Source: Komagataeibacter swingsii (GTDB lineage: Bacteria; Pseudomonadota; Alphaproteobacteria; Acetobacterales; Acetobacteraceae). Taken from it: DNA of 64,000 bases. The translations under genes and the position numbers were made by a program. This document shows positions 25,048 to 40,180 of this stretch, piece by piece. The stretch covers positions 186,001 to 250,000 of the forward strand of contig NZ_NKUB01000001.1 in assembly GCF_003207895.1 (NCBI RefSeq), read 5' to 3'. Below the pieces are notes generated by a model. That model was given only the letters and a program-made list of their open reading frames with translations, did not search any database and was not told the DNA's origin. How positions within the stretch are numbered: position 1 is the first letter of the stretch; every line of letters starts with the position of its first letter.

Positions 25048-25899
25048 ATGAAGACGGTTACTTTCCCCAATGGCGCCACGGTGCCCGCGCTGGGCATGGG
25101 CACGTGGAACATGGGGGACAGCGACAGCCGCCGCGCGGATGAAATCAAAAGCATCCATGCGGGTCTCGACGCGGGTATCCGCGTGGTGGACACGGCGGAA
25201 ATGTATGGCTCCGGCCGTTCCGAAAAACTGGTGGGCGAGGCGATCAGGGGACGACGTGATGACGTGTTCCTTGTCAGCAAGGTCGTGCCTTCCAACGCAT
25301 CGCGCGATGGGGTGCGCAAGGCCTGTGCCGCGTCACTGAAGCGGCTGGGCACCGATCATCTGGACCTCTACCTGCTGCACTGGCCCGGCAGCGTGCCGCT
25401 GGAGGAAACGCTGGCCGGATTCGATGACCTGATTGATGCGGGCATGATCCGGAGCTGGGGTGTGTCCAACTTCGACGCCGATGGCATGCGTGAGGTCGAA
25501 AGCATACCCGCCAGCACGCCCTGCGCGGCCAACCAGGTGCTGTACAGCCTTGATTACCGCGGGGTGGAATTCGACCTGCTGCGGCGTGACCGCGATGCGG
25601 GCGTCGTGACCATGGCCTATTCCCCGCTGGGGCAGGGGGGCGACCTGCTGCGCGCGCCGGTGCTGGAACGTATCGCGCGGCGGCATGCGACATCCCTCGG
25701 GCCTGCCACGCCAGCGCAGGTCGCGCTGGCGTGGGTGCTGCGGCAGGAAAACGTGCTGGCCATTCCCAAGGCGGGCAGCCCGCGCCACCAGCATGAAAAC
25801 TTCGCCGCGACCCAGATCACCTTGACGCGCGATGATCTGGCGCAGATTGATGAAGCCATAGCGCCGCCGCGCCGCAGGGAGCCGCTGGCCATGATCTGA
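25048..25899 (+). CDS. Aldo/keto reductase
   Basis: A 283-residue NAD(P)H-dependent oxidoreductase of the AKR superfamily. The catalytic tetrad is visible: Asp and Tyr in RVVDTAEMYGSG, Lys in FLVSKVV, and His in YLLHWPG. C-terminal cofactor contacts are in LAIPKAGSPRHQHEN. The layout resembles the E. coli YeaE-like 2,5-diketogluconate or methylglyoxal reductases. The substrate is not deducible. It stands alone, with hairpins on both sides. Confidence 0.9.
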   Translation: MKTVTFPNGATVPALGMGTWNMGDSDSRRADEIKSIHAGLDAGIRVVDTAEMYGSGRSEKLVGEAIRGRRDDVFLVSKVVPSNASRDGVRKACAASLKRLGTDHLDLYLLHWPGSVPLEETLAGFDDLIDAGMIRSWGVSNFDADGMREVESIPASTPCAANQVLYSLDYRGVEFDLLRRDRDAGVVTMAYSPLGQGGDLLRAPVLERIARRHATSLGPATPAQVALAWVLRQENVLAIPKAGSPRHQHENFAATQITLTRDDLAQIDEAIAPPRRREPLAMI

Positions 25900-25925: not shown

Positions 25926-25945
25926 CATGCGGGAGGGCTGTCATC

Positions 25946-27724
25946 ATTCCTGTCATCCTTGTCGTAACCGTACTGCTGGTGGGGGGGGCGGGCGCCCTGC
26001 CGGCCTGCTGGCCACGGCCGGCTGCGGGCATGGTGCCGGCCTTGCGCTGCGGGTGGCTGGCCGTGGGCGTCATGGCCGTTCTGTCCTGCCTTGGGGTCGT
26101 GCTGCCGGGCGGGGTCGTGGCGGGGGCCGGTTTTTCGGGTGACGCGCGTGATGTCGCCCTGCTGGCGCCGCTGGGCATCGTGGGGTTTGCAGCATCCGGC
26201 GGGCGTGACCTCGCGGCCTGCGCCGGGGCGGCGCTTGCGGTAACCGGCGGGCCGGTCCTGTCCTGCATGGGGGCGGGCTGGGTGCTGGTCGCATGCGCGC
26301 ATGCCCCGCATGGCGATATCCCGCGCATGGCCGCGCGACAGGTGCCCGACCTGATCGCCCTGCTGCTTATGGCGGCGGTGCTGGTGTTCCCGGCCCATGC
26401 GGGCTGGCTCCTGCCCGGCCTGTGCTGGCTGGGCACGCGCGGGTTGCTGGGGCTTTCCTTTTCCCTGCGCGTGTCGCCGCGTGGGGGGCAGTCCTTCCAG
26501 ATGGCCGATATCGCCGCGATGGTCGCCGCCATGGCGCTGTGGGGCCACCTGCCCACGGGCGGCATGATGGCGGACATGCGCTGGGGTGGCGTGCTGATCG
26601 TGGCGGGCTGCCTGCTCTACATGACGGCGTCGTGGCGGGCGCTGTGCGCGGGTGACGGGCGCAGGGTCATGTCGGGACTGCTGGGGGGCACGGGCGCGCT
26701 GGTGATCGTGCTGGCGGGGCTGGGCCTGCTGGCCCGTGCCGATGACCTGCCCGCCATGGCCATATGCGCCAGCCGGACGTTCATGCTGGTCGTGGGCACG
26801 CTGCTGACATGGATGTTCATGGCGCGCGCCATGGATGCGATGGAGCGCGAGGCCGGTGCCCTTGTACTGTGTCGCCTGGGGGGGCTGGGTGTGTTGATGC
26901 CGCGCCTGTCGGCCCTGTTTTCCATCGGGCTTCTGGCGGAAAGCGGGCTGCCGCCCCTGCTGGGTTTTTCCATTATCTGGATGCTGCTGCACCTGCTGGC
27001 GGCCATGCCGCGTGGTGGCGGGCCGGGGGCGGACCTGCCGCTGCTGCTGGCCCTCCTGGCGCTGGGGGTGGGGTGGGCGGTGCGCATGCTTGCGCTCGTG
27101 CGCATTGTCGCGGTCATGCTGTGTGGCAGGCCACGCACGCCGCGCGGGGCCGGGGCGTCTGATCCGTCGGGGTGGGAAATGGCGACGTTGCTGCTGGCGG
27201 CGCTGCCGGTGCTGTGCGCCTCCATCTGGCCGGGATACTGGCTGGGTCTGGTGGGGGGGCATGGTCCGGGTGGCGTGATGTGGCCGCTGGTGGAGAATAT
27301 CGCGCTGGCGTCGCCCGACGGGGGGGCGGTGCTGTATCCCGCGCGGTTGTGCCTGCTGGTGGCGGTGGTGGGGGGCGTGGTCGTGGTGCTGCGCCGCATG
27401 GCCTGCCCCATGCCCGCCCGCCAGGTCGCGGGCTGGCAGAACGGCGCGCCCCCCGTGCCGCCGTGGATGGTGTTTGGCGATCCGCTGACGCAGGTGGGGC
27501 TGGGCAATCCCGCGCGCATGCTGCTGGATATGGTGGTGACGCCCGCGATGCGCAGGCGGTGCCTGCGTGGCTACGTGCGCCTGCGGCGGCGGACGGGGCG
27601 GTCATGGCGGCTGCTGGCGCGATACGTGGGAAGCCTGCGGCCGGATGGCGCCATGGCATCCGCGCCGGTGGTGATGGCCATGGCGGGCATGGCGGCACTG
27701 ATATTCATTGCGTGGCATGGATAA
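25946..27724 (+). CDS. HyfB/NuoL-like proton-translocating membrane subunit, start uncertain
   Basis: This large hydrophobic protein resembles the antiporter-type subunits of hydrogenase-4 and complex I (HyfB, NuoL/M/N). More than ten hydrophobic segments are apparent, and SGLPPLLGFSIIW matches the family's GLPP-x-x-GF turn. The first conventional start in frame is GTG at 25979 (581 residues), but it has no ribosome site. The reading frame stays strongly hydrophobic upstream (IPVILVVTVLLVGGAGALPA). GGGAGGG at 25931-25937 points to an ATT at 25946 or ATC at 25943. I used 25946. It is first of six tightly packed genes. Function rests on homology and context. Confidence 0.75.
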   Translation: MPVILVVTVLLVGGAGALPACWPRPAAGMVPALRCGWLAVGVMAVLSCLGVVLPGGVVAGAGFSGDARDVALLAPLGIVGFAASGGRDLAACAGAALAVTGGPVLSCMGAGWVLVACAHAPHGDIPRMAARQVPDLIALLLMAAVLVFPAHAGWLLPGLCWLGTRGLLGLSFSLRVSPRGGQSFQMADIAAMVAAMALWGHLPTGGMMADMRWGGVLIVAGCLLYMTASWRALCAGDGRRVMSGLLGGTGALVIVLAGLGLLARADDLPAMAICASRTFMLVVGTLLTWMFMARAMDAMEREAGALVLCRLGGLGVLMPRLSALFSIGLLAESGLPPLLGFSIIWMLLHLLAAMPRGGGPGADLPLLLALLALGVGWAVRMLALVRIVAVMLCGRPRTPRGAGASDPSGWEMATLLLAALPVLCASIWPGYWLGLVGGHGPGGVMWPLVENIALASPDGGAVLYPARLCLLVAVVGGVVVVLRRMACPMPARQVAGWQNGAPPVPPWMVFGDPLTQVGLGNPARMLLDMVVTPAMRRRCLRGYVRLRRRTGRSWRLLARYVGSLRPDGAMASAPVVMAMAGMAALIFIAWHG

Positions 27725-27730
27725 GGCTGC

Positions 27731-28699
27731 ATGATGACGTCGTTTTCCCTTGCCGCGTGGATGCAGGCTCTGCTGCTTGCGGGCTGCCACATGGCGCTGG
27801 TCATGGTGACGGTGCCAATATGGATCGGCCTGCTGCGCTGGATGGCCGCCATGATGGAAGGCGAACGCCGCCTGCCGGACCCCACCGCGCACTGGCGCGC
27901 CCTGCTGCAGGCGTGGCGGCAGGTGGGCGTGCGTTCGGCGGCGGGCGCGCAGGTCACGGCGGTGGCACCGTGGCTGGCGCTGGCGGCGGGCATGGTGGCG
28001 GCGTTGCTGGTGCCGTCCTTTTCCATTGGCATGCCCGGTAGTGACCTGTCGGATGTGCTGGTTGTCGGCGGGTTGCTGGAAATGGCCTTCCTCGCACTGG
28101 TGGTGGCCGCCCTTGCGCCGGGCCTGGCGCGGCCGGGCCATGCGGGGCTGCGGGTCGTGGCGGGCGGGATCATGATCCAGCCGGTCATGCTGCTGGCATG
28201 CGCCGTGCTGGGCATGTGCCTGCCCGATGGCACGCTGGCGGGACTGGTGCGGCAGGCGCATGTGGCGGACATGAACCTTGTGCGCGTGCCGCTGGCGCTG
28301 GTTGCCGGCGCGCTGGTCGTGGCGGGGGTGGGGGAAGGCCATGTCACGGCATTACGGCTGTCGGCGGCCATGCTGGAGGACCTTGCCGGTCCCGACCGCG
28401 CCGTGGCCCGGTACGCGCACGACCTGCTGGCGGTGGTGTGGATGATGCTGGCGCGTGACCTGATCTGGCCCGAGGGGATTGTGGAACCCGACATCCTGCC
28501 GCGTGGCCGGGTGCTGGTGCCCATGCTGGTGGCGGTCATGTTGTGGGTGGCGCATATGCTGCTGGCCTGCGGGGGTGTCGCGGCGATACGGGTATTCGTG
28601 GTGTCGGGGCCGCTTCATGCGGGCTGGCGGGCGGGACTGGCGCTGTTATGCGCCATCATGGCCGGGGTGCTGCTGTTTGCCGGGCGGGGGATGGGCTGA
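27731..28699 (+). CDS. HyfC/NuoH-like membrane subunit
   Basis: A 322-residue polytopic protein resembling HyfC/HycD and NuoH, the membrane subunit that contacts the iron-sulfur arm. About eight hydrophobic segments are seen. The stretch MNLVRVPLALVAGALVVAGVGEGHVTALRLS corresponds to the family's charged loop around the RxPL motif. Further on, AVARYAHDLLAVVWMML aligns with the late helix. It starts 6 bases after the HyfB-like stop. Divergence is high, so individual proton-path residues were not assigned. Confidence 0.75.
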   Translation: MMTSFSLAAWMQALLLAGCHMALVMVTVPIWIGLLRWMAAMMEGERRLPDPTAHWRALLQAWRQVGVRSAAGAQVTAVAPWLALAAGMVAALLVPSFSIGMPGSDLSDVLVVGGLLEMAFLALVVAALAPGLARPGHAGLRVVAGGIMIQPVMLLACAVLGMCLPDGTLAGLVRQAHVADMNLVRVPLALVAGALVVAGVGEGHVTALRLSAAMLEDLAGPDRAVARYAHDLLAVVWMMLARDLIWPEGIVEPDILPRGRVLVPMLVAVMLWVAHMLLACGGVAAIRVFVVSGPLHAGWRAGLALLCAIMAGVLLFAGRGMG

Positions 28700-28701
28700 C
28701 C

Positions 28702-29247
28702 ATGCTGGTGCTGCTGTTTGGTGTTCTGGTCATCCTCTCGCTTTCAACGTCGGGGGCGCGCGGTGGCGGCCCGGTCTGGCATGGGGCGTGCATGGCTGCG
28801 TGCGTGTGCCTGTCGCGCTGGGGGCTGGGGCGGGTCGGGCCGGCCTGCATCATGGCGGTGGGGCTGGCGGGACTGTTCGGGCTGCTGGGCGTGCAGATGC
28901 TGCATGTCCCGGCGGGCGCGCGTGAACGCAGCGGCCTGCGCCTTGCCGGCGGGCTGGCCTGTATCGCGGTGCTGGCGCAGGTCATCATGCAGGGACCACA
29001 GGTGGACATGACGGCGCGCCTTATGGGCATGACGGGGCTGGCCGCCATCCTGTGCGGGGTGTGGGGGGCATGCATCGCCCGCGGGCCGGTCGCGTTATGC
29101 GCGGGTCTGGCCTGCGGGCTGGATGGCGTCATGCTGCTGGCGGCGCGGGCGGACAGCCTGCTGGTCATGGGGGAGGTCATCATTGCCGCGATCGGCCTGA
29201 ATATCCTGCTGGCCACGCATCCCCGGTCGCATGGCGGGGCGGCATGA
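28702..29247 (+). CDS. HyfE-like membrane subunit
   Basis: A 181-residue protein with five or six hydrophobic segments, matching HyfE in size and position. The C-terminal part (RADSLLVMGEVIIAAIGLNIL) resembles NuoK-type helices carrying a membrane glutamate. The ATG lies 2 bases after the upstream stop and the stop overlaps the next start (ATGA). The call relies mainly on operon position. Confidence 0.65.
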   Translation: MLVLLFGVLVILSLSTSGARGGGPVWHGACMAACVCLSRWGLGRVGPACIMAVGLAGLFGLLGVQMLHVPAGARERSGLRLAGGLACIAVLAQVIMQGPQVDMTARLMGMTGLAAILCGVWGACIARGPVALCAGLACGLDGVMLLAARADSLLVMGEVIIAAIGLNILLATHPRSHGGAA

Positions 29248-30320
29248 TGGCGCCGCCGCTTTACGCCAGCCTGCTGGGTGGCTGGCTGGTGCTGGCGCAG
29301 ACCGCCCTGCTGGTGACGGGCGGGACGCTGGCGCTGCGTGGCCTGCTGGCGGTGGTGCTGCTGGTCCTGTGTGGTGTGGGGAGCGCGCATTTCCCCGACA
29401 TGGCGCGGATCATGACGGGATGCGGCCCCGCGCTGGCATTGTGCGTGTGGGTTTTCGGGCCATCCCGCGCCGGGGAAAACGCTTCGCGTGGGGGGGACAT
29501 GCTGCCCTTTTTCCTGTCGGGCATCGCGGCCCTTGCCATGGCGTTGGGACGGTGCGACCTGCTGGTGGCCCTGCTGGGCTGCGGGCTGGTGGCGCGGCTT
29601 GGGCTGGCGATCGGGCCGCGCGGGCTGGACCGGGACGGGTGGCAGGTGTTGCGCATGGGACTGGGTGGCCTGCTTGTGGCGCAGGGCGGGCTGTTCGTGC
29701 TGCAGGCGGACTGGGGGCATATGCAGGACCAAGCCGGGGCGATCCTGCTGGTGGGCGGGCTGCTGCTGGCCTGTGGCGTTCCGGGCCGTCCGGGGATGGT
29801 TGCGCCGGGCTGGAACATGGAAGCACTGGCCGTGCTGCCGGTCGTGGCGCAGGCGGCCCGTATCTGGCCGGTGCTGCTGCCTGCGCTGACCTTCATGGGG
29901 TGTGTGTGCCTGTCATGGGCGGTCCTGTCGCGGCGGGGGCGGTCGTTTTTGGGGGATTACTGGGCTGGCTGGGCCGTGCTGGCTGCGGGGCTGCCGGGTG
30001 GTGGCATGGGGGGGCTGCCGCTTGCCGCCAGCCTGCTGGCCATGGCCTGCGTGACGCCGTCGGACGGGCGGCTGCCGTGGGCCATGCTGTGGCCGCCGGC
30101 CCTGCCCGGCATGGCGATCGTGCTGGTACTGGTGGGGGAAATGGGTAATATGCCCCCTGTGGCGCTGCTGGCTGGCGCCAGCCTGTGGCCGGTCATGGCG
30201 GCATGCCCGGGGGCGGGGCCTGGCAGGCCATCATGGGCGCGGGCGGCGCTGTTGCTGGCCATCGGGTGCGTGGTGCTTGCCTGTGCCGGGTATGACCAGA
30301 TGGGGGGCGGGTCGTGGTGA
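29244..30320 (+). CDS. HyfF-like short antiporter-type membrane subunit
   Basis: This 358-residue hydrophobic protein occupies the HyfF position, but it is shorter than the ~480-526 residues of HyfF or NuoN. It has roughly eight to ten hydrophobic segments, and the antiporter signature is weak (LPGGGMGGLPLAASLL near the end of the core). It starts with a 4-base overlap and ends overlapping the next gene by 7 bases. A shortened proton-channel subunit is the best reading. Confidence 0.6.
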   Translation: MMAPPLYASLLGGWLVLAQTALLVTGGTLALRGLLAVVLLVLCGVGSAHFPDMARIMTGCGPALALCVWVFGPSRAGENASRGGDMLPFFLSGIAALAMALGRCDLLVALLGCGLVARLGLAIGPRGLDRDGWQVLRMGLGGLLVAQGGLFVLQADWGHMQDQAGAILLVGGLLLACGVPGRPGMVAPGWNMEALAVLPVVAQAARIWPVLLPALTFMGCVCLSWAVLSRRGRSFLGDYWAGWAVLAAGLPGGGMGGLPLAASLLAMACVTPSDGRLPWAMLWPPALPGMAIVLVLVGEMGNMPPVALLAGASLWPVMAACPGAGPGRPSWARAALLLAIGCVVLACAGYDQMGGGSW

Positions 30321-31798
30321 CGCAGGTGGCGGACCTGATCCGCAGGGGCGTGCCCACGGAGTGTGCGGGGCGATTCGTGCTTGATGCGGAGGAATGGCAT
30401 GCCATGGTGGCAGCCCTGTCCCGTTCCGACCTGCCGCTTCTTGGCCTGTGGTCGGACGGCATGCAGGCGCATGCCCTGTTCATGGAGGGCACGCGCCCCC
30501 TGATGGCCAGCATCGCGGTAACGGACGGGCGCTACCTTGCCCTGTCCCCCGTGCGGGCCGGTGCCAGCGCGCCTGAACGCATCATGCACGACCTGTGGGG
30601 CATCGAGGCCATGGGGGCGACAGGCAGCGCCCCGTGGCTGGACCAGGGGCGATGGCCGGTGACATGGCCCCTGCGCGACCGGCCCCCGCCAGCCCCCGCG
30701 CCGCCCGATGGGGTGGAATTCACCGATGATGCAACCATGGTGCGCGCCGGGGGCACCGTGCTGGGCCACGGCCCGGCGGAGGGGGATTTCAACGCCCCTT
30801 TCCACCTGCGCCTGGGCCTGCCGGGGGAACGGATCATGCAGGTGCAGCCGCGCATGGGCTATGCCCATCGTGGCCTGTGCGCGCGCATGCGGGGCGCGAC
30901 CGTGGCGCAGGCCGCGCGCCTGGTGGCGCGGATTGACGCCACCGCCACGGTGGCCCACCAGCAGGCCTTTGCGGGCGCGCTGGCCGCGGCGGGGGGAAAA
31001 CAGGCGGGGGAAATGCGCGATGCGGACCTGTTCGTGGGCGAACTTGGACGGATCGCGACCCATCTGGATACGCTGGCCGTCGCAGCCGAACTGCTGGCGG
31101 ACGGGCGTTGCGCCATGCTTGCCGCAACCCTGCTGGAACGGGTGCGGCAGGCCTGCGGGGATATGTGCGGCAGTCGCCTGCTGTTTGACGTGCTGCCGCC
31201 TGCGGGCGCTGGAGAACGGGCACTGTCCATTCCCCCTGAACTGCTGGCGGAACTGCGCAATGGTTGCAGGGTCCTGCAACGCCTGTTCTGGCGGCCGCGT
31301 GGCATGGCCATGCAGGCGCGGGGGCGGGGCATCCTGTCGGCCGATATCGCCCGTTACTGGGGCATCGCCGGATGCGTGGGGCGTGCGGGCGGTGCTGAAT
31401 CCGATCTCAGGCCCTATGTATCGCGCCCGCCCCGGGGCTGGCCGGAGGGATACCCCACGATGGCGGGCGATGTGGCGGTCCGCCTTGCCTTGCGCCTGCA
31501 TGAAGTCGAAACGGCGGTGGAAATGCTGTCCACGTTGGACCCGATGCCGCGCCTGACAGTACCCATGCCGGGCGATGACCATGGATCGGGCGAAGGGATT
31601 GGCTGCGTGGAAGGGCCGGCAGGGCCGGTCTGGCACTGGCTGCGGGTTGAAAATGGCCGGGTGGCCGCGTGGTGTTGCGGTGACCCGTCCCTGTCGCTGT
31701 TCCAGGCGTTGCCGCAGGTGTTATCCGGCGCGGTGTATGAGGACGTGCCGCTGATCCTTGCCTCCCTCGGCCTGTCGGCGGCATCAGCGGACCTGTAG
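30314..31798 (+). CDS. HyfG/HycE-like (NuoC-NuoD fusion) subunit lacking nickel ligands
   Basis: This 494-residue protein has a NuoC-like N-terminal domain (ERIMHDLWGIEAMG near residues 90-105). The NuoD/hydrogenase-large-subunit domain follows (YAHRGLCARMRG near residue 180). True [NiFe] enzymes carry CGxC after the DRI motif and DPCxxC at the C terminus. Here the first site reads RIDATA (D208, A211) and the second reads DPSLSL (S459, L462), so all four nickel ligands are missing. It is therefore not a hydrogenase. It matches the idea of an energy-converting hydrogenase-related complex, whose substrate is unknown. Its start overlaps the upstream gene by 7 bases. Confidence 0.82.
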   Translation: MVTQVADLIRRGVPTECAGRFVLDAEEWHAMVAALSRSDLPLLGLWSDGMQAHALFMEGTRPLMASIAVTDGRYLALSPVRAGASAPERIMHDLWGIEAMGATGSAPWLDQGRWPVTWPLRDRPPPAPAPPDGVEFTDDATMVRAGGTVLGHGPAEGDFNAPFHLRLGLPGERIMQVQPRMGYAHRGLCARMRGATVAQAARLVARIDATATVAHQQAFAGALAAAGGKQAGEMRDADLFVGELGRIATHLDTLAVAAELLADGRCAMLAATLLERVRQACGDMCGSRLLFDVLPPAGAGERALSIPPELLAELRNGCRVLQRLFWRPRGMAMQARGRGILSADIARYWGIAGCVGRAGGAESDLRPYVSRPPRGWPEGYPTMAGDVAVRLALRLHEVETAVEMLSTLDPMPRLTVPMPGDDHGSGEGIGCVEGPAGPVWHWLRVENGRVAAWCCGDPSLSLFQALPQVLSGAVYEDVPLILASLGLSAASADL

Positions 31799-31804
31799 GA
31801 AGGG

Positions 31805-32260
31805 ATGATGGCGTATCTTAACCTGTTCTGGCCCGAAGGCGCGGTCCTGCCCCGCATGCTGCCGCTGGACATCTTCCATATCGAAACCGGGGGCTGCACT
31901 GGCTGCGCGCTTGAACTGCGCAGCCTGTCGCGCGCCCTGGTGGAAGGGCGTTCCGATATCCGTTTCGTTTCCACGCCGCGACAGGCCAGCCTGCTGCTGC
32001 TGACCGGCAGCCTGACGGTGGAAATGGCCCCGGTCGTGGAACTGGCATGGCAGGCCATGCCCGGTACGCGGCTGCTGGCCGCAATGGGGGACTGCGCGCT
32101 GGATGGCGGCGTGTTCACACCCAATTATGCGGTGATGGGCGGGATAGGGGGCCGTGCGCGCGCCAGCGTGGTGCTGCCGGGATGCCCGCCTTCGCCTGCG
32201 GAAATGCTCGACGCCCTGATCCGCTGGCGCATGCAGGGCGAAGACGGCCCACCCGCATGA
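31805..32260 (+). CDS. HyfI/NuoB-like iron-sulfur subunit
   Basis: This 151-residue subunit resembles HyfI, HycG and NuoB. All four expected [4Fe-4S] (N2-type) cysteines are present: C31 and C34 in TGGCTGCALE, C97 in AMGDCALDGG, and C127 in LPGCPPSP. The cluster is therefore probably intact even though the partner large subunit lacks nickel ligands. The operon ends here. No ferredoxin (HyfH/NuoI or HyfA) and no Hyp maturation genes lie nearby. A second ATG is the next codon. Confidence 0.85.
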   Translation: MMAYLNLFWPEGAVLPRMLPLDIFHIETGGCTGCALELRSLSRALVEGRSDIRFVSTPRQASLLLLTGSLTVEMAPVVELAWQAMPGTRLLAAMGDCALDGGVFTPNYAVMGGIGGRARASVVLPGCPPSPAEMLDALIRWRMQGEDGPPA

Positions 32261-36732: not shown

Positions 36733-38097
36733 TCATGTGTGCGGATGCCTGTTGAGGGCAATGCCCGTCAGGCATGCATGCATGATTGCATTGGCATTCT
36801 GGCCGGTCTGGTAGGTGGTATCGAGCACCGGGGCGGGATCAAGGAGTTCAAAGCCAACCACCGTGTTGCTGGCGCATATGCCCCGGACAAGGGGAATGGC
36901 CTCACGCATGGTCATGCCACCTGGTAGCGGGCGACCCGTGCCCGTGGCGTATGCGGGGTCAAGAACACTCAGGTCGAATGATACAATGACCTTATGCGCT
37001 TTTGTCTTCAGTTCATCATTCACGGTCTGCAACAGGGCCATCGTGCCGTGCTGCTCCAGTTCGGTGACCGGGTGCGTGACAACGCTGCCGGGACGCGATG
37101 TCGTGGGCTGGATGGATGGGGCGCCATCCCTTACGCCAACCTGAATGATATTCTGGGGCAGGACGCTGCCGTTTTCCACCAGCCGGCGTACGGACTGGTT
37201 ATCCGCGCGCAGGTGTCCGTCATCTTCCCAGTCCGTTTCGCCATGTGCATCAAACTGCACGACGGATATGGCGTCATGCCCGTAGACGGATGACAGCCCG
37301 GATACATCGGGAAACATGACGGAATGATCGCCACCGATGACAAACGGGACAACATGCAGACGGGCCATCTGTGCGATCATGTCACGGATATGCGCTTCCG
37401 ATCGTTCCACGCTCATGTAATCCACCGCGAGATCCCCGTAATCGGCCAGACGGAGCGCCGCGCCGGGATTGATGCCGGTATCGGGATCGGGGTCGCTGGC
37501 GCTGCCCGTCAGGTAATCCGCAGTCCGCAGCATCATGGGACCATGAAGGGCGTCACGCCAGCCGGTGCTGAAATCCTGTGGCACGCCGACGAAGGCAACC
37601 TCCACATGTCCTGCTTCCAGATCTTCGGGGTGGAGGGCGAACGGGGCGTGCGCGAAGGTGGGAATGCCGGTTTTCTGGTGGATGTAGCGGTCCAGGATGA
37701 TGGGGCCGGGGTCACGGTGCAGGTCATCAAGAATGGCGGGCCGGACAACGGTTTCCCCATTGAAGGCCAGGGCGGATGTGGTGTTTAGCGGAATATCGGG
37801 CTGATCGCCGGGCTGGAAGGCTTCTTTCGCCACGGCATTCATCATGGCGTCAATATAATCCTTCGCCTCCACCGTGCTGCGTCCGGTCAGGACCATGCGC
37901 ACCTTTTCCGGTGTCAGGCGGAATTCCGCCAGTTTGTGTGGATCGGTGGCGAAGGCGCGTTCCGCTGGTGTCAGGCCGGCCAGGGCATCGGGTTGCGCCG
38001 GGGCCTGTGCATGCGCCGGGGGGAATAACGGACCGGCCAGCACGGCTGCCAGGGTCGAAAGAAAGAGCATTTTGCGCATTGGATTACCCGTTCTCAC
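36733..38097 (-). CDS. Exported ureohydrolase-family protein with altered metal ligands
   Basis: This 454-residue protein belongs to the arginase/agmatinase family and has an N-terminal export signal (MLFLSTLAAVLAGPLFPPAHAQA). The first metal ligand is kept (H258 in IGGDHS), as are D283 and H285. The fifth ligand Asp is Glu (E287 in DAHGETD) and the sixth is Ser (S377 in FDLSVLDP). The enzyme is therefore likely inactive, or it binds a single or different metal. The GTG at 38097 overlaps the stop of the intact paralogue by 4 bases and has GGGGGGAA at ideal distance; ATG 38079 is possible. Co-expression suggests a hetero-oligomer or a regulatory partner. Confidence 0.85.
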   Translation of the reverse strand: MRTGNPMRKMLFLSTLAAVLAGPLFPPAHAQAPAQPDALAGLTPAERAFATDPHKLAEFRLTPEKVRMVLTGRSTVEAKDYIDAMMNAVAKEAFQPGDQPDIPLNTTSALAFNGETVVRPAILDDLHRDPGPIILDRYIHQKTGIPTFAHAPFALHPEDLEAGHVEVAFVGVPQDFSTGWRDALHGPMMLRTADYLTGSASDPDPDTGINPGAALRLADYGDLAVDYMSVERSEAHIRDMIAQMARLHVVPFVIGGDHSVMFPDVSGLSSVYGHDAISVVQFDAHGETDWEDDGHLRADNQSVRRLVENGSVLPQNIIQVGVRDGAPSIQPTTSRPGSVVTHPVTELEQHGTMALLQTVNDELKTKAHKVIVSFDLSVLDPAYATGTGRPLPGGMTMREAIPLVRGICASNTVVGFELLDPAPVLDTTYQTGQNANAIMHACLTGIALNRHPHT

Positions 38098-39581
38098 TTT
38101 GATGTTCCCCCCAGGTGATCACGCTGATGATCGACGGTAAGCGGGCTGAGATAGTTTTTCTGCGTGATGCCTTTCTTGCGCATGGCAATGCCGGTCAGGC
38201 AGGCGTTGAGAAGGAAATTGGCGTTCAGCGCGGTCTTGTAGCTGGTGTCGAGATAGGGCGCGTACTCCACGATATCGAAACCGACAACATTCTTCTCGGC
38301 ACACAGGCGGCGCAGGATCGGCTGTGCTTCCCGCAGGGTCAGGCCGCCGGGAACGGGCGTGCCCGTACCGGGGGTGAAGGCCGGGTCCAGCGCATCGATA
38401 TCAAAGGAAATCCACAGCTTGTCCGTATTCTGGCTGGCTTCCGCCAGTGCGCGTTCCATGACGGCGTTCCAGCCGCGTTTTTCCACTTCCACCATGGTGT
38501 GGTAGCGCATGTTGTTATCGCGCATCCATTTGAAGCCCGCTTCCTCCGGCCCACGTGAACGCAGGCCGACCTGAATATAGTTTTTCCCCTGCACGTGACC
38601 TTCATGGATGACCCGGTATACCGGCTGCCCATGATCGATCAGGTGGGGTTCGTTGTGCCAGGCGTCGTAGTGGGAATCGAAGTGCACGACACCCACTTTC
38701 CCCTTGCCATAGACATCGGTAATGCCCGCCACGTCGGGATATTCCAGTGAGTGGTCACCGCCGACGACCACGGGGATGGAACCTGCACGGGCGATTTCCG
38801 CCACAGTGCGCCGCACTTCGTCAATGCTGCGTTCGGTGCTGAGATTGTCTATCGCCACGTCACCGTAATCGACAATCTTCAGTTCCTCGATGGGGTCGAC
38901 CATGGTGTACATGTCCGGCCCCCACGGTCCCTGTGCGCCGCGTGAGGTGCGCATGTCCATCGGGCCGTGCTGTGCATCACGGAAGCCGGATCCCATGTTC
39001 AGTGGCGCCCCCACGATCGCGACATCCACCTTGCCCGCCTTTAGATCCTCGGGTGTCAGGGCAATGGGGGCATAGGCAAAGGTGGGAATGCCGCTGAATG
39101 ACCCGTATTCGCCACCAATGTAACGTGTAATCTGGATCGGCCCCGGTTCACGTTTCGGATTGAGCTGCTGGGGAATGCGGGCATTCCATGCATTGAAACT
39201 GGGTGATTTCGTATCAAGGGGAATGCTGGCGGGATCTCGGCCCGGCTTGAAATCGACCTGTTCGGCAACCGATACCATGGCCGAGACATAGGCACTGATT
39301 TCTTCAGGTGTTTCTTTTTCCAGCTTGGCGAACAGTTGCGCAGGTCCCCCCGGTGGCCGGGCGAACATGTACAGCGCCGGGCTGGTCAGAAAGGCCTTCT
39401 GTTCATCGCTCAGGGCCGTCAGTCGGGGCTTCAGCACATCCGGTATGACAATTTTCGGCAGGGGTGGTGGCTTGTCCACGTCTGTCGCACCGTCCGCAGC
39501 AGATACAGGGGCTGCCTGCACCATGCCCAGACTGGAAAAGGACAGCATGGACGCGGCAAGAAGACACAGGTGCCGTGACAT
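38094..39581 (-). CDS. Exported ureohydrolase (agmatinase/arginase family)
   Basis: A 495-residue member of the Mn-dependent ureohydrolase family, which splits guanidino groups to urea. All six metal ligands are visible: H277 (VGGDHS), D302, H304 and D306 (FDSHYD), and D394 and D396 (SFDIDALDP). The family's PGTGTPVPGG follows. An export signal (CLLAASMLSFSSLGMVQAAP) and a ~120-residue N-terminal extension are unusual for this normally cytoplasmic family. I chose the ATG at 39581. An upstream start would add an arginine-rich stretch. Agmatine, guanidinobutyrate, guanidine or another guanidino compound are all possible substrates. Confidence 0.88.
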   Translation of the reverse strand: MSRHLCLLAASMLSFSSLGMVQAAPVSAADGATDVDKPPPLPKIVIPDVLKPRLTALSDEQKAFLTSPALYMFARPPGGPAQLFAKLEKETPEEISAYVSAMVSVAEQVDFKPGRDPASIPLDTKSPSFNAWNARIPQQLNPKREPGPIQITRYIGGEYGSFSGIPTFAYAPIALTPEDLKAGKVDVAIVGAPLNMGSGFRDAQHGPMDMRTSRGAQGPWGPDMYTMVDPIEELKIVDYGDVAIDNLSTERSIDEVRRTVAEIARAGSIPVVVGGDHSLEYPDVAGITDVYGKGKVGVVHFDSHYDAWHNEPHLIDHGQPVYRVIHEGHVQGKNYIQVGLRSRGPEEAGFKWMRDNNMRYHTMVEVEKRGWNAVMERALAEASQNTDKLWISFDIDALDPAFTPGTGTPVPGGLTLREAQPILRRLCAEKNVVGFDIVEYAPYLDTSYKTALNANFLLNACLTGIAMRKKGITQKNYLSPLTVDHQRDHLGGTSK

Positions 39582-40180
39582 GGGCCTGCGTCTGCGTGGT
39601 CGTGCGGCCTCATGGTTGCAGACAGATGGAAGGTAATGATCCCGGTTGGGGGACCGCACATGCTGTGTAACCATGAATATTTCCCGCCGTATGAAAATGC
39701 ATCGGAATTATGCCCGGATACTTTCGAACCGCCTTGTGGTGTCATGGAATACGCATTTCCGCGTATTGATCGCGGAGACGGAGAATTTCAAAATAACAGG
39801 TAAATTTTTATAGATTATGAAGTAAACGATTAATAAATAACGATTTTAATACAAAACACATTACCTGCTAATAACAATTATAATAAAAAGCACATTTCCG
39901 TGAGTTGCGCTCATCCCCGCATGGTTGCCGTGGATGCCCTGCATGGGCGCAGCGCCTGTCTATACAACCTTCATGCCGGCAGGGGCGGTAGGATCATCCA
40001 GCCGGAGCCATCACTGTATCGGTGCCCGCTGTCTGGCATGATGGCACGGGACAGTGGTTATGGTGACCGCAGGGAATGATGTTGACGGGCTAATTCATAT
40101 CGCTATCATAACAATATGACATCGGTGATTTACTGGTTTCCACCGTTATTTCCGGTCTGTCGGATGGCAGGGACTTTTCC
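39582..40180. promoter_or_regulatory. AT-rich divergent control region
   Basis: No gene is supported in these 599 bases between divergent operons. Bases about 39780-39900 are strikingly AT-rich against the GC-rich surroundings, with many A/T runs. An operator-like inverted repeat AATACGC-N6-GCGTATT lies at 39748-39767. A predicted plus-strand promoter is listed separately. The AT-rich block probably holds the minus-strand promoter for the ureohydrolase pair, but I could not fix its boxes. Confidence 0.65.
40082..40109 (+). promoter_or_regulatory. Predicted sigma-70 promoter of the hydantoinase-like operon
   Basis: TTGACG (40082-40087) and TATCAT (40104-40109) are 16 bases apart, each matching the consensus at five of six positions. 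Transcription would begin about 65 bases before the ATG at 40181. Confidence 0.6.

What the first reader, a model, noticed from the sequence alone, without database searches (positions are those of the whole stretch)
25946..32260. Six-gene complex I / hydrogenase-4-like operon with no ferredoxin subunit and no maturation genes
Order is HyfB-HyfC-HyfE-HyfF-HyfG-HyfI type, with overlaps or gaps of at most 6 bases. HyfI-type cysteines (C31, C34, C97, C127) are all present, so one iron-sulfur cluster should exist. However, no HyfH/NuoI-type or HyfA-type ferredoxin, no second long antiporter (HyfD) and no hyp genes are seen. An electron-transfer module reduced to a single cluster, joined to a multi-subunit membrane arm, would be a minimal ion-pumping or redox-sensing machine in an obligate aerobe.
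Basis: partly seen in the sequence, partly recalled or inferred. Interest (0 to 1): 0.85.

Follow-up and report, generated by a model that had tools for sequence, protein, structure and literature searches.

The report
Complex I cousin lacking pump residues
Vinegar bacteria carry a six-gene relative of respiratory complex I that has lost both the hydrogen-handling metal site and the residues its kin use to pump protons, yet it is still kept intact, so it probably does something other than make hydrogen or pump.

Summary
The six-gene operon is real, intact and under purifying selection. It is an Ehr ("energy-converting hydrogenase-related") operon, a published kind; six genes without ferredoxin or hyp is ordinary there (a Rhizobium plasmid has the same set). 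The large subunit lacks the Ni-Fe cysteine pairs, and the genome has no HypD and no PF00374 hydrogenase, so it is not a hydrogenase. The small subunit keeps its four cluster cysteines.

In acetic acid bacteria both antiporter-like subunits have lost the charged residues of proton conduction. At five aligned sites in each, loci outside this branch keep 26-27 of 27 (HyfB) and 31-34 of 34 (HyfF). Acetic acid bacteria keep 0 of 34 and 0 of 43 at eight of the ten sites, and 1 of 34 and 5 of 43 at the other two. The HyfC loop aspartate is also lost (2 of 44 left). The large-subunit tree puts them in one clade, and many share one chromosomal site. A "minimal ion pump" is therefore unlikely. I favour a non-pumping, single-cluster redox module at the HyfG/HyfI/HyfC junction, perhaps sensing the quinone pool. 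The loss is shown by alignment; the function is inferred.

The parts
25932..25937 (+). GGAGGG, Shine-Dalgarno-like, 8 bases before the ATT codon of hyfB
   Evidence: Sequence; similar purine-rich stretch upstream in the other genus loci
25946..27724 (+). hyfB-like antiporter subunit, 592 aa, probable ATT start; pump residues lost
   Evidence: NF005086, 1.3e-11, below that model's cut-off; hhalign 99.05%, residues 213-590; best PDB match an E. coli formate hydrogenlyase chain
25946..26581 (+). HyfB residues 1-212: no detectable match to canonical HyfB; the region that should hold the TM5 Glu
26975..26977 (+). HyfB I344, in place of the TM12 Glu (GFSIIW for GFxSEW)
27731..28699 (+). hyfC/nuoH-like subunit, 322 aa; the PVDNPxxHLEL loop is deleted
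   Evidence: (hhalign 99.3%)
28702..29247 (+). hyfE-like subunit, 181 aa
   Evidence: position; acetic acid bacterial profile against canonical HyfE 95.2%
29244..30320 (+). hyfF-like antiporter subunit, shortened to 358 aa (about 520 in canonical kin); pump residues lost
   Evidence: (94.3%)
30314..31798 (+). hyfG-like large subunit, 494 aa, no Ni-Fe ligands
   Evidence: (PF00346 6.4e-10)
30935..30946 (+). Site of the first Ni-Fe cysteine pair, here D208-A-T-A211
31775..31786 (+). Site of the second Ni-Fe cysteine pair, here S488-A-A-S491
31805..32260 (+). hyfI/nuoB-like small subunit, 151 aa
   Evidence: (PF01058 6.2e-21)
31895..32185 (+). C31, C34, C97, C127 of HyfI: ligands of one predicted [4Fe-4S] cluster
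   Evidence: 24 of 25 family rows keep all four; the cluster itself is not testable here

Best explanation
The operon encodes the acetic acid bacterial form of an Ehr complex, a six-subunit relative of group 4 [NiFe] hydrogenases and complex I. It is not a hydrogenase (no Ni-Fe ligands, no HypD in the genome). It is very probably not an antiporter-type ion pump: HyfB and HyfF have lost the Glu/Lys/His residues that carry protons in their kin, HyfF is shortened, and the HyfC loop that in kin links the redox site to the antiporters is deleted. What is kept is a HyfG/HyfI unit with one predicted [4Fe-4S] cluster on the membrane anchor HyfC. I infer that it works at that junction as a membrane-bound redox module: the cluster exchanges electrons with membrane quinone or an unidentified carrier, and the change of state is used for sensing or as a plain relay, without proton pumping. 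Shown by sequence: family, loss of the Ni-Fe site, loss of the pump residues, purifying selection, one clade. Inferred: quinone as partner, a sensing role, absence of pumping in vivo. My split: Ehr identity 0.95; no antiporter-type pumping 0.85; redox sensing or relay at the junction about 0.35.
For: Family: gene order, profile and fold matches to E. coli formate hydrogenlyase subunits, same six-gene set elsewhere. No Ni-Fe site: neither cysteine pair in 27 family rows; HypD and PF00374 absent. Pump loss, rows grouped by the large-subunit tree and duplicate genomes dropped: HyfB E142, K221, H228, K352, E407 (E. coli numbering) kept in 27, 27, 27, 26, 26 of 27 outside rows and in 0, 0, 1, 0, 0 of 34 acetic acid bacterial rows; HyfF E143, K232, H239, K351, E406 in 34, 33, 34, 31, 32 of 34 and in 5, 0, 0, 0, 0 of 43; HyfC D203 in 28 of 28 and 2 of 44. 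No D, E, K or H is 80% conserved in acetic acid bacterial HyfB (19 rows) or HyfF (27 rows). Kept function: dN/dS below 1 for all six genes, lowest on average in hyfC and hyfI, highest in hyfF in each of six comparisons; 24 of 25 family rows keep the four HyfI cysteines; operon retained at the same site in four genomes of 1.9-2.7 Mb.
Against: No electron donor or acceptor is linked, and no experiment is at hand. The complex I quinone tyrosine is absent (E. coli NuoCD Y273 aligns with A, S or G in 33 acetic acid bacterial rows), so a quinone site is not supported by that residue. AlphaFold models were poor (mean pLDDT 54 and 56), so a rebuilt proton path cannot be excluded. A proteomics paper on Geobacter suggests that Ehr there may help make hydrogen from formate (passages of PMC7894505). 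32 of 200 family genomes have no match.
Confidence: 0.5

Rival explanations
1. A slowly eroding relic: Ehr lost its purpose in an ancestor of the acetic acid bacteria and the residue losses are relaxed selection without a new function.
For: Fast divergence compared with neighbours (large subunit 85% where the flanking genes are 93-97% identical in K. diospyri); hyfF dN/dS up to 0.66; 32 of 200 family genomes lack it; a stop inside the Asaia prunellae HyfG match; L087 has lost three HyfI cysteines.
Against: All six genes open in 15 of 15 complete genus loci; dN/dS below 1 throughout; the losses are ancient (one clade) yet the operon survives in genera that diverged since, and in small genomes.
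Confidence: 0.25
2. It still pumps: ion transport was rebuilt on residues that alignment does not reveal (for example conserved arginines, or HyfC D231 and D243), driven by the HyfG/HyfI redox reaction.
For: HyfB and HyfF are retained and still look like multi-helix membrane proteins; some R are conserved in HyfB and HyfF and D231/D243 in HyfC; HyfB fold still matches antiporter subunits.
Against: No conserved D, E, K or H in HyfB or HyfF at the 80% level; all canonical sites gone in both subunits plus the HyfC loop.
Confidence: 0.12
3. An electron-transfer enzyme with an unlinked soluble partner, such as a formate dehydrogenase or ferredoxin, as proposed for FDH-Ehr of other lineages, feeding quinone.
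For: FDH-Ehr has been proposed for Riflemargulisbacteria and Saganbacteria (passages of PMC6349859); ferredoxin-type proteins exist elsewhere in this genome; an aldo/keto reductase gene lies 46 bases upstream.
Against: No such partner is linked in the loci scanned; aldo/keto reductases carry no cluster or flavin (recalled); the quinone tyrosine is absent.
Confidence: 0.12
4. A hydrogenase-4 or formate hydrogenlyase.
For: Gene order equals E. coli hyf without A, D, H, J; databases name relatives 'hydrogenase 4 subunit'.
Against: Neither Ni-Fe cysteine pair is present; HypD and PF00374 absent from the genome.
Confidence: 0.01

Closest known systems
Ehr (energy-converting hydrogenase-related) complexes, e.g. 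Sulfobacillus, comammox Nitrospira, Geobacter GSU0739-45, and unnamed six-gene operons such as Rhizobium ruizarguesonis pTA1_4
   Same: Group 4-like subunits, no Ni-Fe ligands, six genes in the Rhizobium case in the same order, no linked ferredoxin or hyp there
   Different: Rhizobium and Azospirillum keep antiporter pump motifs; the acetic acid bacterial form has lost them, has a short HyfF and no HyfC loop
Mycobacterium tuberculosis Rv0082-Rv0087 (hyc locus)
   Same: Six-gene locus listed as two oxidoreductases, HycD, HycP, HycQ, HycE (passages of PMC6901956)
   Different: Order differs as far as the names show; called a putative [NiFe]-hydrogenase in that paper; its sequences were not compared here
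E. coli hydrogenase 4 (hyf) and formate hydrogenlyase (hyc)
   Same: Homologous B, C, E, F, G, I subunits in the same order; best PDB matches are formate hydrogenlyase chains
   Different: E. coli has HyfA, D, H, J, the Ni-Fe ligands and the pump residues
Respiratory complex I (two nuo loci in this same genome)
   Same: NuoB, NuoD, NuoH and antiporter folds
   Different: No NADH module, no NuoI, no quinone tyrosine, no pump residues

Membership tests
Ehr complexes | Large subunit of the group 4 / NuoD kind lacking the Ni-Fe cysteine pairs | tested here: met
   Neither pair in 27 of 27 family rows; of 73 rows in the wider set no row has a pair, 4 have a single cysteine at one site (L147, L107, L112, L079)
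Ehr complexes | Group 4-like membrane subunits including antiporter-like ones | tested here: met
   HyfB and HyfC by profile comparison; HyfE and HyfF with the broad profile only
Ehr complexes | Large subunit groups with published Ehr large subunits in a tree | not tested
   Published EhrL references (Geobacter, Nitrospira, Sulfobacillus) were not fetched; the tree holds only E. coli HyfG as a named outgroup
Ehr complexes (as suspected ion pumps) | Functional antiporter-like subunits | tested here: not met
   Pump residues absent in HyfB and HyfF. Pumping is suspected, not demonstrated, for Ehr (passage of PMC6349859), so this does not exclude membership
Group 4 [NiFe] hydrogenase / formate hydrogenlyase | Ni-Fe ligands in two CxxC pairs | tested here: not met
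Group 4 [NiFe] hydrogenase / formate hydrogenlyase | Maturation machinery in the genome | tested here: not met
   HypD 0 of 1 genome while the control rang in 4 of 14 named genomes; other hyp genes not searched
Respiratory complex I | NuoI-type ferredoxin subunit and NADH module in the operon | tested here: not met
   Six genes only
Single-cluster NuoB/HyfI subunit | Four conserved cysteines | tested here: met
Single-cluster NuoB/HyfI subunit | A redox-active [4Fe-4S] cluster | not testable with these tools
   Needs EPR

The most novel reading that the evidence does not exclude
Acetic acid bacteria have kept, by vertical descent, a complex I relative stripped first of its hydrogenase centre, then of the proton-conducting residues of both antiporter subunits, then of the HyfC coupling loop: a double pseudo-enzyme that now serves as a membrane redox sensor or uncoupled relay, a natural experiment in what a complex I-like machine can do without pumping.
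Probability: 0.4. Interest if true: 0.75.

Novelty: new variant of a known kind. Interest (0 to 1): 0.55.

Why it matters
The papers read here leave the function of Ehr open (PMC4378227, PMC10284858) and the usual guess is ion pumping (PMC6349859). A whole lineage that keeps the complex after losing the pump residues separates the two ideas: whatever is still selected in acetic acid bacteria is unlikely to be antiporter-type pumping. That gives a simple comparative test of Ehr function in tractable, harmless bacteria, and a natural case of redox chemistry and pumping coming apart in the complex I family, with intermediate states preserved in relatives.

Tried and rejected
Hydrogenase reading: rejected on ligands and maturation. 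'Missing ferredoxin is special': rejected by the Rhizobium operon and by a CX2CX2-3CX3C scan of 35 stretches (20 family loci, 14 genus loci, the window). The only hit in a long frame was an 889-aa frame on the other strand in L084, about 4 kb past hyfI; the other hits were in frames of at most 194 aa, several with a stop inside the motif.

Compositional artefact: is the loss of lysine only high GC? Canonical relatives at GC 0.70-0.74 keep 4-5 lysines in HyfB, and Acetobacter loci at GC 0.57-0.61 have 2-9 lysines in HyfB but none in the K221 or K352 column. So GC may explain the general drain of lysine, not the loss at pump sites.

I repeated it with rows grouped by the large-subunit tree and known duplicates dropped; those are the counts reported. 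Rows dropped there: HyfB not found in 11 acetic acid bacterial loci (7 Asaia/Swaminathania/Acidomonas, L086, L089, L090, L091) and not separable from HyfF in 8 outside loci; HyfF not found in 5 loci; HyfC in 8. Five (HyfB), three (HyfF) and five (HyfC) basal rows counted apart: 0 of 5 and 0 of 3 at every antiporter site, but HyfC D203 kept in 4 of 5. Results against a clean split: one acetic acid bacterial row keeps a His (L035), five Acetobacter rows keep HyfF E143, two rows keep HyfC D203, and the outside row L152 lacks several sites. For the tree labels were given beforehand patterns, alignments and genus membership; L086 was labelled on HyfC alone; 23 of 74 rows had no label. Long branches are flagged in that output.

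Led nowhere: Pfam for HyfB, C, E, F; the HyfF model, whose best fold match was not significant; promoter scan, 0 found against 0.5 expected; hydropathy counts of charged residues (too coarse: E. coli HyfF itself scored no K). Class-wide search: 158 of 190 genomes match, but most are partial hits near E 1e-40 that I read as NuoD; 21 of 190 genomes match at E 1e-90 or better, 18 of them outside the family.

Literature: 'acetic acid bacteria' with 'hydrogenase-4' gave 0 papers; Ehr, group 4, NiFe, Acetobacteraceae together 0; listings showed no paper on this operon in acetic acid bacteria. I saw passages only of PMC6349859, PMC7894505, PMC3087520, PMC4378227, PMC10284858, PMC6901956; listings only for all others. 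Marreiros 2013, Coppi and Berney 2014 were not read. 'Not in print' is claimed only for these searches of this open-access library.
Full report
WHAT IS THERE. The six reading frames are as described, with junctions from a 7-base overlap to a 6-base gap. Pfam recognises only the large and small subunits; NCBIfam adds a sub-cut-off hydrogenase-4 subunit B match for the first gene. The nearest named loci are Komagataeibacter diospyri and K. europaeus, so the window is most likely a Komagataeibacter. All 19 of 19 genomes of the genus carry the large-subunit gene; of 18 neighbour loci fetched, 14 hold the whole operon and have all six genes in order, 4 are cut by contig ends. Against six relatives every gene has dN/dS below 1 (0.17-0.66), lowest on average in hyfC and hyfI, highest in hyfF each time. 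It is a maintained operon.

NOT A HYDROGENASE. E. coli HyfG has CGIC and CYSC. The window has no cysteine at the four sites, and none of 27 Acetobacteraceae rows has either pair; in a wider set of 73 rows no row has a pair and four have a single cysteine at one site. HypD and the classical [NiFe] large-subunit family are absent from the genome. This fits the published description of Ehr complexes: group 4-like, without the Ni-Fe ligands (passages of PMC4378227, PMC6349859, PMC10284858).

THE MISSING FERREDOXIN IS ORDINARY. The Rhizobium ruizarguesonis TA1 plasmid carries hyfB, nuoH, hyfE, hyfF, nuoC/D and nuoB in this order, preceded by a small helix-turn-helix regulator, with no ferredoxin or hyp gene listed within 8 kb and no cluster motif in the stretch. 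M. tuberculosis Rv0082-Rv0087 is a six-gene locus too (passage of PMC6901956). In 35 stretches scanned here one possible ferredoxin-type gene was seen, about 4 kb from the operon of L084.

WHAT IS UNUSUAL. I aligned the membrane subunits with relatives and with E. coli. Outside the acetic acid bacterial branch HyfB is about 675 aa and HyfF about 520 aa, and the proton-conduction residues are there. In one search, with rows grouped by the large-subunit tree and known duplicates dropped, E. coli HyfB positions E142, K221, H228, K352, E407 are kept in 27, 27, 27, 26, 26 of 27 outside rows and in 0, 0, 1, 0, 0 of 34 acetic acid bacterial rows. HyfF E143, K232, H239, K351, E406: 34, 33, 34, 31, 32 of 34 against 5, 0, 0, 0, 0 of 43. 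HyfC D203: 28 of 28 against 2 of 44. That these residues carry protons is recalled from work on complex I and its relatives. Five basal family rows lack all antiporter residues scored (0 of 5 HyfB, 0 of 3 HyfF) but 4 of 5 keep HyfC D203, which suggests that the antiporters were lost first and the HyfC loop later. Rhizobium and Azospirillum Ehr keep pump motifs, so the loss is derived. Profile comparison confirms HyfC (99.3%) and HyfB residues 213-590 (99.05%), with no match for HyfB residues 1-212. HyfE and HyfF are recognisable only with 46- and 45-row acetic acid bacterial profiles (95.2% and 94.3%; HyfF against canonical HyfB 0.09%). The HyfB model, poor as it is (pLDDT 54), best matches an E. 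coli formate hydrogenlyase membrane chain in the PDB (Foldseek E 6.8e-7); the HyfF model has no significant match.

EVOLUTION. In a 74-row tree of the large subunit the 33 rows labelled pump-dead need one change of label; the fork with exactly these rows has 98/96 support, the wider fork with five unlabelled basal rows 100/99. The operon lies between the same genes (IMPase, aminopeptidase, HolC, aldo/keto reductase on one side; PssA, Psd on the other) in Komagataeibacter, Gluconacetobacter (one, L101, partly) and the isolate KSS12, and in part in Acetobacter and four small genomes of 1.9-2.7 Mb (L085, L086, L089, L090): the mark of vertical descent. In the family sample 168 of 200 genomes have a large-subunit relative at E 1e-15 and 32 do not, so it is common but dispensable.

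LYSINE. The six proteins of the window hold 1 lysine in 2,098 residues. Over 15 genus loci it is 37 in 31,180 (0.12%), against 719 in 32,663 (2.2%) in flanking genes. High GC may explain part; canonical HyfB at GC 0.70-0.74 keeps 4-5 lysines.

HOW IT MIGHT WORK. Kept are the HyfG/HyfI unit with one predicted cluster and the HyfC anchor, where constraint is strongest. No D, E, K or H is conserved at 80% in HyfB (19 rows) or HyfF (27 rows); HyfC has conserved D231 and D243. I favour a redox module at the membrane surface that senses or relays electrons without pumping. The weak point is the partner: the complex I quinone tyrosine is absent, no donor is linked, and the models cannot show a cavity. 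A relic is the main rival, and a Geobacter proteomics paper leans to a formate-hydrogen role for Ehr there (passage of PMC7894505).

VERDICT. Observation confirmed; interpretation partly supported; family known; the pump-dead acetic acid bacterial branch looks like a new variant. I found no paper on it in the open-access library with the searches.

Noticed in passing
25932-25948: hyfB seems to start with ATT: ATTCCT is conserved in 15 of 15 genus loci behind a purine-rich stretch, in L036 a stop lies five codons upstream, and in L038 the next ATG/GTG/TTG is at codon 29. ATT starts are rare (recalled: infC). Gluconacetobacter loci also show no ATG at this place but ATC.
   Followed up: partly
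25946-32260: Lysine almost absent: 1 in 2,098 residues in the window, 37 in 31,180 over 15 genus loci against 2.2% in flanking genes.
   Followed up: partly
25048-25899: An aldo/keto reductase gene lies 46 bases upstream on the same strand. It is next to the operon in Komagataeibacter, Gluconacetobacter and KSS12, near it in Asaia and Acidomonas, and next to it in two Pseudoroseomonas loci where the other flanking genes are not found; absent in the four Acetobacter loci. Possibly co-transcribed.
   Followed up: partly
28388-28471: Acetic acid bacterial HyfC has a conserved G220, R223, D231, W237, D243, W246, P247 pattern (23-28 of 28 rows), a candidate functional site.
   Followed up: no
L046 and L047 (own genome C25 near 325 kb, C36 near 328 kb): Two separate nuo (complex I) loci in the same genome; L047 is closer to E. 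coli (NuoCD 60%) than L046 (37%).
   Followed up: no
L087 (12610-13002), L155 (HyfG): L087 HyfI has lost three of the four cluster cysteines; the Asaia prunellae HyfG match contains a stop. Possible local decay.
   Followed up: no
L114, L133, L080, L081, L087: Basal family loci lack the antiporter pump residues but 4 of 5 keep HyfC D203: possible intermediate stage of the loss.
   Followed up: partly
L177 2583-2897: On the Rhizobium plasmid a helix-turn-helix regulator gene overlaps the start of hyfB by 4 bases, hinting at regulation specific to Ehr there.
   Followed up: no
G382:C21:12988-14445: A genome of about 0.9 Mb, 100% complete, outside the family has a full-length large-subunit relative (E 3.5e-144): Ehr kept in a very small genome.
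   Followed up: no
36733-39674: Two adjacent minus-strand ORFs (454 and 526 aa) that look like arginase/agmatinase-family proteins with N-terminal signal peptides (read by eye).
   Followed up: no
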